Below, one piece after another: positions 45,732 to 55,639 of a stretch of 64,000 nt of DNA; the first letter of the stretch is position 1, and every line of letters begins with the position of its first letter. Under the pieces are notes generated by a model. The model did not search any database. It had not been told where the DNA came from and was given only the letters and a program-made list of their open reading frames with translations. The translations under genes and the position numbers were made by a program. The stretch lies in the NCBI GenBank assembly GCA_905160935.1, contig CAJHZI010000656.1:15001-79000 (forward strand), written 5' to 3'. Origin of the DNA: Enchytraeus crypticus (lineage: Eukaryota; Annelida; Clitellata; Enchytraeida; Enchytraeidae).

Positions 45732-45866
45732 ATGACTATCAGAAGACTTAAGGAAAAGCTCTTTCTCTTGGTAGCAATGCAATTGTTCTACACATGTTCA
45801 GGATTGAGCAATCACAAACTGGCTGAGCATCAGCCAAATTCTAGAGAACAAGGATACTTCAATAGG
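45732..45866 (+). CDS. Neuropeptide precursor exon 1 (signal peptide)
   Basis: It encodes 45 residues: MTIRRLKEK, hydrophobic core [15 protein letters not shown], then [21 protein letters not shown]. The ATG at 45732 is chosen because it gives a typical n-region, h-region and cleavage area; the reading frame is open upstream but without an earlier ATG. The donor AGG|GTAATT is weaker than GTAAGT but leaves phase 0, which the next exon needs. A TATA-like box sits about 150 bp upstream. Confidence 0.65.
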
Positions 45867-53074: not shown

Positions 53075-55639
53075 TAGTGCACTGGATACTGGCAGGTTCA
53101 TGGAATATAACTACTCCACTCTTTTCTGTCTTCCGCCTTCCTCTTCATTTCCACATATGAGTGGGTCTTTAAATCATCTAACATACCTAATCTCGGTCTT
53201 CCTTTGCCTCTATTTCCTTCCATTCTACCTTCTATGACCTCTTTTAGTAGACCTTCTCCCCTTAGAATGTGTCCTATCCAACTCTTCTTCCTATTTCTTA
53301 ATACATTTATCAACTGTCTATCTGTGCCAGCTCTCTCTAGCACTTCCTCATTTGTAGCCTTTTGAGTCCAACTTATCCTTTCCATTCTTCTCCAAATCCA
53401 CATTTTCAACGCCTCCAGTTTCCTAATATCTTCCTTCCATAAGGTCCATGTCTCACATCCATACAATAGCGTGGTCCAAACCAAAGTTTTCACTATCTTT
53501 ATGTTAGTGTCTTTCTTTAGACTTTTTGTTAATAGTTCTTTTCTATTGCCAAAGGCCGTTTTTGCTTGTGCAATCCTACTGCAGATTTTCGTCTCACATT
53601 TCCCATCATCGGTTATAGTATGATCCAAATATTTGAAACTCCTTACCTGTTCCAATTTCGTACCATTTATTGTGATATTAACTTCACCTTTATTATTAAG
53701 CACTCTCATAACTTTCGTCTTTTATATTAATCTTCATGCCATCTCTCAATGCCGTATCATTCAGCCTATCCATTATCTTCTGCAGTCCCATCTCGCTGCC
53801 CGCTACCATTCCTTGGTCATCCGCAAACCGTACATCTTGTAACATTTTCCCTCCTACTTTTATTCCTTCTTCCATGGCTTCCATGGATTTTATTCCATGT
53901 CATCCATGGCTTCCTCCGTCATTGCCTCAGCGTAAATGTTAAACAGCAGCGGCGAAATGCTACAATCTTGTCTTACTCCACGTCCTATTTCGTATTCTTC
54001 TGTTTATTCTTGTTGGATTTTCATTACTGCTCTTTGATTCATGTACAAGTTAAAAATTAGTCTTCTCTCTCCAGTCAATTCCTATTCTTTTTAAGATATT
54101 CATCATCGTTATCCAATCAATCCTGTCAAAGGCCTTCTCGAAGTCTGCAAAGCATACAAAGACGTCATTTCCATATTCTAAGCTTCTTTCGCAAAGAACC
54201 CGCATTACCCCTATTGCTTCTCTTGTGCCGCATCCTTTCCTAAAACCAAATTGTGTCTTGCTCAGTATCATCTCTGCTTTCGACTGAATACAATTATTTA
54301 CTATCTTTAATACGATCTTCGATGCATGAGGTATTAAACTGATTCTTCTGTAATTTGAACACTCCACAGCATTGGATTTTTTGGGAATTTGGATCATCAC
54401 TGACTTGGTAAAGTCGTCTGGTTAAACCCCGCACATATTGATCCGCGGTCGAGTACCTTATCGACATTACCACTGGCTCCAGCCAGTGGTAATGTCGATG
54501 GTAATAATACTATCTGCCTAATTACCTGTAGGCCTATAATGTGCATATAGACATTATTTACACTTTATTGCATTATATAAACCGTATATTAAGCAGAGTT
54601 TCGTTCAAAAGGTCAAAATATTAATTTTATTTAATATAAACATGTATTTATATTTTATATACATGTACTCTACAATGTATTTCTCTTGAAGGGAAGATCA
54701 CAAAGCAAAGTATTTCTCTTGAAGGGAAGATCACAAAGCAAAGGTTGTCATACTTTGGACATGTCATGCGAGCGAGTTCAATTGAGAAATCAATTATGCT
54801 AGGACAGGTTAGTGGGAAAAGGAGGAAAGGTCGTCAAAGAACGCGTTGGCTTGATACTGTAGAATTTGACCTCAACACCAGCATAGCGGATTTGAGGGAG
54901 GCTGTAAGAAATCGTGATATATGGAGACAGATAGTTCATAAAGTGTCCAAGAGTCGGCTTCGACTGAATGGATAACTCATCATCATCATCACTCTACAAT
55001 GTAGATTTATAAAATTAAAAATATACACATACAAGGAGCTCAAAAGAAAAAAAGATCATTTCAATTTGCGCTGACAATATTACATAATTTATGCACCAGA
55101 AAATGGAACGGGAATATTGATGAAGAATCCATCATCACATAGTCTTCTTCTTGTGTAAGTGCTGTGCCTGTTCCAAGCCTGTGCGGTCATGGTCATATTC
55201 CTCCATATGTCTCTGTTCATTGTTGCTCTGATCATCTCTGTTTCAGTTAACTGCATCCATTTGCTATGACTCTTAAAAAACGTCATCCGCTGCCGACCCA
55301 TGCATCTTTTTCCTTCTATTATTCCTGTCACTACGGTATTTTCAACTATTTTGTTCCGCATAATGTGTCCGAAAAACTTCATCTGTTGTCGTCGTATTCG
55401 GTTCAAAAGGTCACGACAAGTTGACATTCTTTGTAACACATCTTCATTTTAACGTGATCTATATAAGATATGCGTAACATTCTTCTATAGAACCACACCT
55501 CTGTTGCATCAAGTTTCGATCACACAGTAAACATAAGTAAAAACATTATTGTTTGTTTCTTCCAGGTGATGAATTGATTGCCAAAAGACATCCACCACCA
55601 CCTCCAGGATTTCACGCTATCCGTGGTAAACGGAATTAG
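45732..55639 (+). CDS. Secreted neuropeptide/peptide-hormone precursor (3 exons, 186 aa) with predicted [17 protein letters not shown]
   Basis: The model is join(45732..45866, 49730..50081, 55566..55639), 561 nt including TAG; splice phases are 0 and 1. Residues 1 to about 26 form a signal peptide (basic MTIRRLKEK, then hydrophobic [15 protein letters not shown]). Residues 46-77 are acidic and Asp/Ser-rich. Residues 79-106 ([14 protein letters not shown], then Arg/Lys-rich) and 126-159 ([11 protein letters not shown] ... [14 protein letters not shown]) look like amphipathic basic helices. Residues 169-186 read [18 protein letters not shown]: prohormone-convertase sites on both sides, and a Gly that would donate a C-terminal amide. 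The only Cys lies in the signal peptide. It should act outside the cell on a receptor; the receptor is unknown. I do not recognise the amidated peptide's family. The middle segment faintly resembles PTH 1-34. Exons 2-3 are well supported; exon 1 depends on a GTAATT donor and correct phase. Confidence 0.8.
46375..46490. repeat. Degenerate CATGACATC repeat
   Basis: CATGACATCATGTCATGATG and related CATGACA/TCATGAC words recur about eight times and can fold on themselves. It lies in intron 1 of the neuropeptide gene. Confidence 0.7.
47440..47570 (+). repeat. Core-repeat family copy, well preserved
   Basis: TGAACGTGTTGCAAGAAGCG, ACTTAGCAAGAACTGAGGAA and GGCAATGGGAAACCACATCA, then TTTTCAAGTTATGGGCC. 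It lies in intron 1 of the neuropeptide gene. Confidence 0.78.
49090..49196. repeat. Tandem repeat CTAGGCTAGCTGATCAATTC
   Basis: About five units of 22-30 bp, each holding CTGATCAATTC and a TAGGCTAGC-type palindrome. It ends 530 bp before exon 2 of the neuropeptide gene. Confidence 0.88.
49730..50081 (+). CDS. Neuropeptide precursor exon 2 (acidic spacer and two helical segments)
   Basis: The acceptor TTTATTTTTCTCGCAG and the donor A|GTAAGT are both strong. The exon gives 117 codons plus one base. It holds the Asp/Ser-rich spacer, the [20 protein letters not shown] helix followed by [12 protein letters not shown], and the [11 protein letters not shown] ... [12 protein letters not shown] segment. 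Basic pairs (RK at residues 98-99, 102-103 and 135-136) could be processing sites. Codon use and amino-acid balance look coding, unlike the surrounding AT-rich DNA. Confidence 0.85.
50310..50448 (+). mobile_element. RTE-like LINE C-terminal fragment (intron 2)
   Basis: The plus strand reads [39 protein letters not shown], parallel to [20 protein letters not shown] in the opposite-facing copy at 55140-55445. Confidence 0.8.
51690..51808 (+). mobile_element. tRNA-derived SINE, divergent
   Basis: TTGTTGGTAAGTTGTTCGAC, B-box AGGGTTCAAATCCAGTGCTC and a 3' end with ACTTACGTTAATCTAGG. It shares the head with the copy at 58490. Confidence 0.65.
52540..52620 (-). repeat. Core-repeat family fragment
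   Basis: GCTTAGTCGCCTTTTGCTGC, ATATGCAGTGAACGATTGAT matches the inverted core at 22960-23000. Confidence 0.65.
52826..53073. repeat. (TA)n microsatellite cluster at the RTE 3' end
   Basis: TA runs at about 52828-52860, 52878-52912, 53000-53030 and 53036-53072, with TACATGTA variants between them. The last run touches the 3' end of the minus-strand RTE-like element. Confidence 0.93.
53074..54420 (-). mobile_element. RTE-like LINE, 1.35 kb of the RT region, inactive
   Basis: On the minus strand, from right to left: [20 protein letters not shown], a palm region with [28 protein letters not shown] remnant, the catalytic-box variant [10 protein letters not shown], then [46 protein letters not shown] and a C-terminal [14 protein letters not shown]. 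These are the ordered RT and connection blocks of RTE-type elements. Frameshifts near 53700 and 53890-54050 and internal stops break it. The 5' side is cut at 54420 by an inverted SINE. It lies in intron 2 of the neuropeptide gene. Confidence 0.88.
54424..54482 (-). mobile_element. tRNA-derived SINE, 5' head only
   Basis: AACCCCGCACATATTGATCC, GCGGTCGAGTACCTTATCGA and CATTACCACTGGCT are the inverted head and B-box half. The first half-unit forms an 18-bp perfect palindrome with the sequence at 54481-54498. Confidence 0.82.
54461..54498. repeat. 18-bp perfect inverted repeat of the SINE 5' end
   Basis: TCGACATTACCACTGGCT, CC, then its exact complement AGCCAGTGGTAATGTCGA. Two SINE 5' ends lie head to head here. 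Confidence 0.93.
54678..54743. repeat. 33-bp perfect tandem duplication
   Basis: TATTTCTCTTGAAGGGAAGA plus TCACAAAGCAAAG occurs twice in direct succession inside an RTE fragment. It keeps the reading frame (11 codons). Confidence 0.95.
54690..54990 (+). mobile_element. RTE-like LINE C-terminal fragment with (CAT)n tail
   Basis: The plus strand reads [40 protein letters not shown], then [20 protein letters not shown] and a stop, followed by CTCATCATCATCATCACTC. This is the RTE C-terminal [15 protein letters not shown] block. Intact reading frame over 90 codons suggests a fairly young copy. Confidence 0.88.
55140..55445 (-). mobile_element. RTE-like LINE C-terminal fragment
   Basis: The minus strand reads [40 protein letters not shown], then [20 protein letters not shown] and a stop. 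It has the same blocks as the 54690 copy but is a different subfamily and orientation. Confidence 0.87.
55566..55639 (+). CDS. Neuropeptide precursor exon 3 (amidated peptide and stop)
   Basis: The acceptor TTTGTTTCTTCCAG is strong. The first two bases complete the Ser codon split by exon 2. It then reads [26 protein letters not shown]. The KR site, the amide-donor Gly and the second KR are the textbook layout of an amidated neuropeptide. The five-proline run would make the peptide rigid and resistant to many peptidases. The exon is only 74 nt long. Confidence 0.87.

What the first reader, a model, noticed from the sequence alone, without database searches (positions are those of the whole stretch)
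45732..55639. Three-exon precursor of a predicted amidated neuropeptide, [14 protein letters not shown]2
Seen: signal peptide exon, middle exon and a 74-nt last exon join with GT-AG sites and exact phases into 186 residues ending [18 protein letters not shown]. Known: KR/GKR flanks and a C-terminal Gly are cut by prohormone convertases and converted to an amide by PAM. Inferred: a secreted, bioactive, proline-rich amidated peptide. I do not recognise a described family with a [13 protein letters not shown] ending.
Basis: partly seen in the sequence, partly recalled or inferred. Interest (0 to 1): 0.92.

Follow-up and report, generated by a model that had tools for sequence, protein, structure and literature searches.

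The report
Single-peptide tachykinin-related precursor gene
This is a real-looking worm gene for a small secreted brain peptide that belongs to a known family (the invertebrate relatives of substance P), not a new family, though it is unusual in carrying only one copy of the peptide.

Summary
Exons 45732-45866, 49730-50081 and 55566-55639 join at GT-AG sites in exact phase into 186 codons ending [22 protein letters not shown]. "No described family" is wrong. GFHAIR-amide fits the protostome tachykinin-related ending F-X-(G/A)-X-R-amide. Aplysia QPHLGFHGSR-amide comes from a three-exon, 165-residue precursor; abalone has pQPHFGFHGVR-amide. Published work says the middle Gly may be Ala or Pro, and F and R are the critical residues. 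In the same 524-Mb genome five loci matched a tachykinin-receptor probe; the two of these compared with solved structures matched neurokinin receptors far better than any other family. A second gene (contig C628) carries 12 FSAMR-amide copies. Mitochondrial gene order nad3-nad2-cox1-cox2-atp8-cox3 suggests an annelid (order recalled). The oddity is a single copy where family precursors usually carry several. No transcript, peptide or orthologue could be tested. New member of a known kind.

The parts
45732..45866 (+). exon 1 (coding part): Met plus signal peptide and start of the propeptide; phase-0 donor AATAGG|gtaatt
   Evidence: hydropathy peak 2.17 for the 11-residue stretch from residue 10
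45732..45803 (+). predicted signal peptide [24 protein letters not shown] (cut after CSG inferred by the -3,-1 rule; no signal-peptide program was run)
   Evidence: sequence; hydropathy
45867..49729 (+). intron 1, 3863 nt, GT-AG
49730..50081 (+). exon 2, 352 nt: propeptide, no G-basic-basic amidation site
   Evidence: single place in the genome search
50082..55565 (+). intron 2, 5484 nt, GT-AG, phase 1; no other F-x-x-x-R-G-basic motif inside it
55566..55639 (+). exon 3, 74 nt to the stop: [27 protein letters not shown]
55583..55588 (+). KR convertase site before the peptide
   Evidence: sequence
55589..55624 (+). predicted mature peptide [14 protein letters not shown]2 (tachykinin-type C-terminus F-X-A-X-R-amide); computed [M+H]+ 1321.7276
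55625..55633 (+). GKR: amide donor Gly plus convertase site
55565..55625 (+). stretch copied (93%, 61 nt) into one other locus, seen three times in the assembly (C105, C318, C321), where GKR is missing

Best explanation
The locus is a three-exon gene for a preprohormone of the protostome tachykinin-related peptide (TKRP) family in an animal that is most likely an annelid. Inferred steps: the signal peptide takes the 186-residue chain into the secretory pathway; prohormone convertase cuts at KR and GKR; carboxypeptidase removes the basic residues; PAM turns the exposed Gly into an amide, leaving [14 protein letters not shown]2. The FHAIR-amide end, with Phe and Arg-amide as the critical residues, then activates one or more tachykinin-type G-protein-coupled receptors, and the proline-rich N-terminus acts as a stiff, peptidase-resistant address part. 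Shown here: exon, splice and phase anatomy; the motif; the presence in the same genome of five receptor loci found with a tachykinin-receptor probe (two of them tested against solved structures) and of a second F-X-A-X-R-amide precursor. Not shown: expression, processing, binding.
For: Gene model and chance controls. Family motif: protostome TKs end FX1GX2R-amide. Closest published peptides seen: QPHLGFHGSR-amide from a three-exon, 165-aa Aplysia precursor; pQPHFGFHGVR-amide and KPHFGFHGSR-amide in abalone; oyster FRFTALR-amide. A-for-G is a known variant: Drosophila DTK-6 ends FVAVR-amide, and Ala or Pro occurs at that place in Lottia, Crassostrea, Octopus, Anodonta and Drosophila. Replacing the middle Gly did not significantly alter activity in Aplysia; only the F and R replacements were critical in oyster (as cited). 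Receptors: a tachykinin-receptor probe finds loci on C382, C402, C768, C622 and C632, first-exon identity 51-61%. Pieces of C768 match neurokinin receptors at 8e-70 to 5e-55 against 2e-35 for the next family; the C382 first exon 2e-28 to 3e-24 against 5e-17. Second precursor on C628 with 12 FSAMR-G copies and its own signal-peptide exon.
Against: The evidence for family membership is six to eight residues of peptide. The rest of the precursor matches nothing in Pfam or NCBIfam, and nothing significant in the PDB (one hit, E 0.98). The starfish paper warns that assigning neuropeptides by sequence alone is hard because of convergence and divergence. Most protostome TK precursors carry several copies, this one has one; a scallop has five. 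The third motif position is Ala, not the usual Gly. Five receptor paralogues do not show which, if any, binds this peptide. No orthologue in another species and no transcript could be examined.
Confidence: 0.84

Rival explanations
1. A real amidated neuropeptide of an undescribed family whose GFHAIR-amide end resembles tachykinins by convergence, acting on a different receptor.
For: No significant similarity outside the tail to Pfam, NCBIfam or PDB entries; single copy; GFHAIR not found in the open paper library.
Against: Motif with F, (G/A), R and amide in register; three-exon precursor of similar size in Aplysia; receptors of the right type in the genome; a second gene with the same G-F-x-A-x-R-amide pattern.
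Confidence: 0.09
2. A natalisin-like peptide (FX1X2X3R-amide), the sister group of tachykinins, acting on natalisin-type receptors.
For: FHAIR-amide also satisfies the looser FXXXR-amide pattern.
Against: Natalisins are reported from Panarthropoda only and are multi-copy; lophotrochozoan receptors form one group apart from natalisin receptors (abstract); the mitochondrial gene order points to an annelid (order recalled). Whether the five receptor loci are of the natalisin type was not tested on a tree.
Confidence: 0.03
3. A non-functional or chance open structure: exon 3 is a repeat fragment and the three exons are never joined.
For: A 61-nt part of exon 3 recurs at one other locus (three assembly copies) without GKR. 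No transcript evidence.
Against: Strong splice sites in exact phase, long GC-rich open exon 2 found once, signal peptide, stop two codons after GKR. The copied stretch starts at the exon-3 boundary and lacks the cleavage/amide site, so it reads as a broken derivative of this gene rather than its source (inference).
Confidence: 0.04

Closest known systems
Aplysia tachykinin-related peptide precursor (apTKRP; PMC11365428, section 4 and passages read)
   Same: Three exons, secreted precursor of similar length (165 against 186 aa), dibasic sites, G-F-H-x-x-R-amide peptide (QPHLGFHGSR-amide)
   Different: Two TKRP stretches in Aplysia, one here; Gly in the third motif place there, Ala here; five prolines here
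Pacific abalone Hdh-TK1/TK2 (PMC9521575, passages read)
   Same: Two TK precursor genes in one species; pQPHFGFHGVR-amide and KPHFGFHGSR-amide end like GFHAIR-amide
   Different: The precursors carry two or three paracopies; FXGXR or YXGXR endings
Anodontatachykinin of the mussel Anodonta cygnea (sequence pQYGFHAVR-NH2 recalled, from no call; that Anodonta has Ala or Pro at the middle place is in PMC11365428)
   Same: If recalled correctly, GFHAVR-amide differs from GFHAIR-amide by Val/Ile only
   Different: Short pGlu N-terminus instead of HPPPPP; precursor not seen here
Second precursor of the same genome, C628 (this work)
   Same: Signal peptide exon, dibasic sites, G-F-x-A-x-R-amide peptides
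   Different: 12 copies in one exon, two exons; best match to the window precursor is only the 10-residue tail at E 0.036
Exocrine (salivary/venom) tachykinins of octopus and mosquito (PMC9521575 and PMC6880623, passages)
   Same: Single copy per precursor
   Different: Chordate-type FXGLM-amide ending, absent here

Membership tests
Protostome tachykinin-related peptides | C-terminal F-X1-G-X2-R-amide, with Ala or Pro tolerated for Gly | tested here: met
   F-H-A-I-R-GKR in frame; A/P variant documented in PMC11365428 and DTK-6 FVAVR-amide. Met in the wide form, not with the canonical Gly
Protostome tachykinin-related peptides | Signal peptide and dibasic cleavage/amidation sites | tested here: met
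   (by hydropathy and motif, no signal-peptide program)
Protostome tachykinin-related peptides | Several paracopies in the precursor (usual, not universal: 1 in tardigrades) | tested here: not met
   One F-x-x-x-R-G-basic motif in the gene region, six frames of the window scanned
Protostome tachykinin-related peptides | Acts on a tachykinin-type GPCR | not testable with these tools
   Five receptor loci found with a tachykinin-receptor probe; neurokinin-type identity tested for C768 and C382 only; binding not testable
Protostome tachykinin-related peptides | Precursor orthology across species | not testable with these tools
   No animal genome collection on hand; one viral-contig scan found no relative
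Natalisins | Multi-copy precursor | tested here: not met
   One copy
Natalisins | Panarthropod host and natalisin-type receptor | tested here: inconclusive
   Annelid-like mitochondrial order, matched from memory; receptor type not resolved on a tree
Chordate/exocrine tachykinins | FXGLM-amide ending | tested here: not met
   Ends FHAIR-GKR

The most novel reading that the evidence does not exclude
This lineage split its tachykinin signalling into a single-shot gene giving one proline-armoured 12-mer and a 12-copy gene giving short (p)QGFSAMR-amide, matched to an expanded set of at least five tachykinin-type receptors: a case of ligand and receptor co-expansion in which one ligand is made as a single long-lived, perhaps gland- or hormone-like, peptide.
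Probability: 0.2. Interest if true: 0.5.

Novelty: new member of a known kind. Interest (0 to 1): 0.3.

Why it matters
It places a seemingly unclassified amidated peptide in the substance P-related family and offers what looks like an annelid set of two ligand genes and five receptor loci that could be paired in a cell assay. It also gives a single-copy exception to the usual multi-copy layout of protostome tachykinin precursors, and a reminder that a search limited to FXGXR would have missed both Ala-type genes found here. It does not open a new family.

Tried and rejected
Rejected: exon-3 copies on C105, C318 and C321 as further working genes. They share 1.8 to 3 kb at 99.9-100% with each other, so they are read as one locus seen three times, and they lack GKR and an AG acceptor at the matching place. 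Rejected as chance: pattern hits on C306 (inside a frame that looks like reverse transcriptase, by eye), C377 (stop inside) and C441 (another frame is the better open one). The reversed control pattern gave 2 hits against 5.

Led nowhere: Pfam, NCBIfam and PDB for the precursor; Pfam for the C628 precursor gave only a weak match below its cut-off (E 0.00097), taken as noise; Rfam and tRNA scans. Exact-motif paper searches: GFHAIR (0 papers; 26 papers hold at least one of six terms, 20 listed; every listed match is to the string FHAIR, none of the 20 titles on neuropeptides; 6 not seen); GFSAMR and variants (0 papers). The paper library is open-licence only and supplements could not be read, so these do not show absence from print. 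The mixed TKRP array probe gave one match at E 2.33 with stops and did not even return the window locus, so it says nothing about absence. A scan of 80 kb of flanking contig found no further complete F/Y-x-x-x-R-G-basic motif (one hit held a stop; part of that sequence is masked). Bacterial promoter scan upstream: not informative for an animal gene. A second genome pattern, F-x-G-x-R-G-K-R, did not complete, so canonical FXGXR precursors elsewhere in this genome are not excluded.
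Full report
Observation. Exon 1 45732-45866 ends AATAGG|gtaatt; exon 2 49730-50081 lies between ctcgcag and |gtaagt; exon 3 55566-55639 follows cttccag. The join is 561 nt and translates to [24 protein letters not shown]...[28 protein letters not shown], 186 residues. An in-frame stop precedes the start codon. The N-terminus is basic and the hydropathy of the 11-residue stretch from residue 10 peaks at 2.17. Exon 2 has GC 0.446 against 0.330 for the window, matched or exceeded by 0.25% of windows of that size, and in 40 simulated windows frames as long as its 138 codons averaged 0.25 per window. 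The peptide tail motif occurred in 56 of 2,000,000 random 24-mers. Dibasic pairs lie at residues 4, 98, 102, 135, 169 and 184; the only G-basic-basic is GKR at 183, and KR at 169 precedes the peptide. The gene region holds no second F-x-x-x-R-G-basic motif in any frame.

The whole genome. The window is part of a 524-Mb genome in 802 contigs, C561:15001-79000. A search with the full precursor at E<=1 gave six places: the three exons, and three hits to residues 160-182 on C105, C318 and C321. Those three are 99.9-100% identical over 1.8-3 kb, hence read as one locus in the assembly three times. They carry 61 nt of exon 3 (55565-55625, 93%), from the last intron base before exon 3 to the first base of the Gly codon; the local alignments to the C105 and C321 copies begin at 55571. 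A 64-nt direct repeat follows. The fragment has no amide or cleavage site, so I read it as a broken derivative. A DNA search with that region gave five places: these three, the window, and a weaker hit on C665 to its distal part.

Which family. The ending is that of protostome tachykinin-related peptides, FX1GX2R-amide (PMC6880623, section 8 read). Aplysia makes FKPSGFMGSR-amide and QPHLGFHGSR-amide from a 165-residue, three-exon precursor (PMC11365428, section 4 read). Abalone makes pQPHFGFHGVR-amide and KPHFGFHGSR-amide (PMC9521575, passages). Oyster predictions include FRFTALR-amide and FGFAPMR-amide (PMC4200219, passages). Ala in place of Gly is a documented variant: Drosophila DTK-6 ends FVAVR-amide, and Ala or Pro is found at that place in Lottia, Crassostrea, Octopus, Anodonta and Drosophila, with no significant loss of activity on substitution in Aplysia (PMC11365428, passages). 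In oyster only F and R were critical (cited in PMC9521575). I recall, from no call, that the Anodonta peptide is pQYGFHAVR-amide, one conservative change from GFHAIR-amide.

Receptors. A recalled insect tachykinin-receptor probe gave 113 places at E<=1e-10 (130 of 744 candidates scored), many evidently other rhodopsin-type receptors, which I did not classify one by one. First-exon matches at 51-61% lie on C382, C402 (two tandem first exons), C768, C622 and C632. Two further loci, C185 and C794, match less well in the first exon (about 43%) and were left out of the count. The six first exons are 55-97% identical to each other: the C402 tandem pair 97%, C402/C622 87%, C768/C632 81%. I compared two of the five loci with solved structures. 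The joined C768 pieces match neuromedin-K, substance-P and substance-K receptors at E 8e-70 to 5e-55, with the prolactin-releasing-peptide receptor next at 2e-35. The C382 first exon gives 2e-28 to 3e-24 for neurokinin receptors and 5e-17 for the next family. No receptor tree was built.

A second ligand gene. A pattern for G-F-x-[G/A]-x-R-G-K-R gave five places in the genome (2 for the reversed control). Two are convincing: the window gene and C628. The C628 frame holds 12 FSAMRG copies: 9 QGFSAMRGRR, 2 AGFSAMRG(R/K)R and 1 SGSFSAMRGKK. A signal-peptide exon METVQLIVLIGCLCSLVLINSEE... ends TTGCAA|gtaata in phase 0 about 3.8 kb upstream and can join ttttag|CATGAC. The peptides share G-F-x-A-x-R-amide with the window peptide; the precursors share little else. 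Two tachykinin precursor genes in one species are on record for Platynereis and others.

Host. The mitochondrial contig C802 fits the invertebrate code (12 TGA inside COX1; AAA as Lys and AGA as Ser fit by eye) and has nad3-nad2-cox1-cox2-atp8-cox3 in that order. From memory this is the conserved annelid order; no reference mitochondrial genome was compared. Gene names there were assigned by eye except COX1 (Pfam).

Mechanism. Convertase cleavage, amidation and action on a tachykinin-type G-protein-coupled receptor follow from established knowledge of these motifs; none was tested. That the five prolines resist peptidases is inference.

Verdict. It is a single-copy tachykinin-related precursor, a new member of a known kind. 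The single copy is its one unusual trait: the abalone paper describes protostome precursors as multi-copy and exocrine ones as single-copy, and the review gives a range from 1 (tardigrades) to 15 (cockroaches).

Noticed in passing
G000 contig C628, about 435.1-439.8 kb, minus strand (L048, L049): Second prohormone-like gene with 12 FSAMR-amide copies and a signal-peptide exon; GFSAMR and variants found in no paper of the open library.
   Followed up: partly
G000 contigs C382, C402, C768, C622, C632 (L033-L040): Five tachykinin-receptor-like loci, including a tandem first exon on C402; one receptor each is reported for Urechis, Octopus and Crassostrea (PMC11365428).
   Followed up: partly
L005, L006, L007 (C105, C318, C321): One 1.8-3 kb locus present three times at 99.9-100%, twice near contig ends: probable assembly duplication; carries a broken exon-3 fragment and a 64-nt direct repeat.
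   Followed up: partly
window 56655-57338 (-) and 54053-54421 (-): Reverse-transcriptase pieces (Pfam RVT_1, E 9.9e-25 and 7.6e-13): LINE-like remnants, the first downstream of the gene, the second within intron 2.
   Followed up: no
window 12824-13576; 35154-35497: A 16-nt minisatellite of about 48 copies and a (TATG)n run of about 86 copies.
   Followed up: no
window 59543-59753: Stretch shared at 82% with L005-L007, probably an interspersed repeat.
   Followed up: no
G000 contigs C361, C424, C796, C373, C166: COX1-like pieces with stops in other contigs (C166 below the family cut-off): likely mitochondrial DNA inserted into the nucleus.
   Followed up: no
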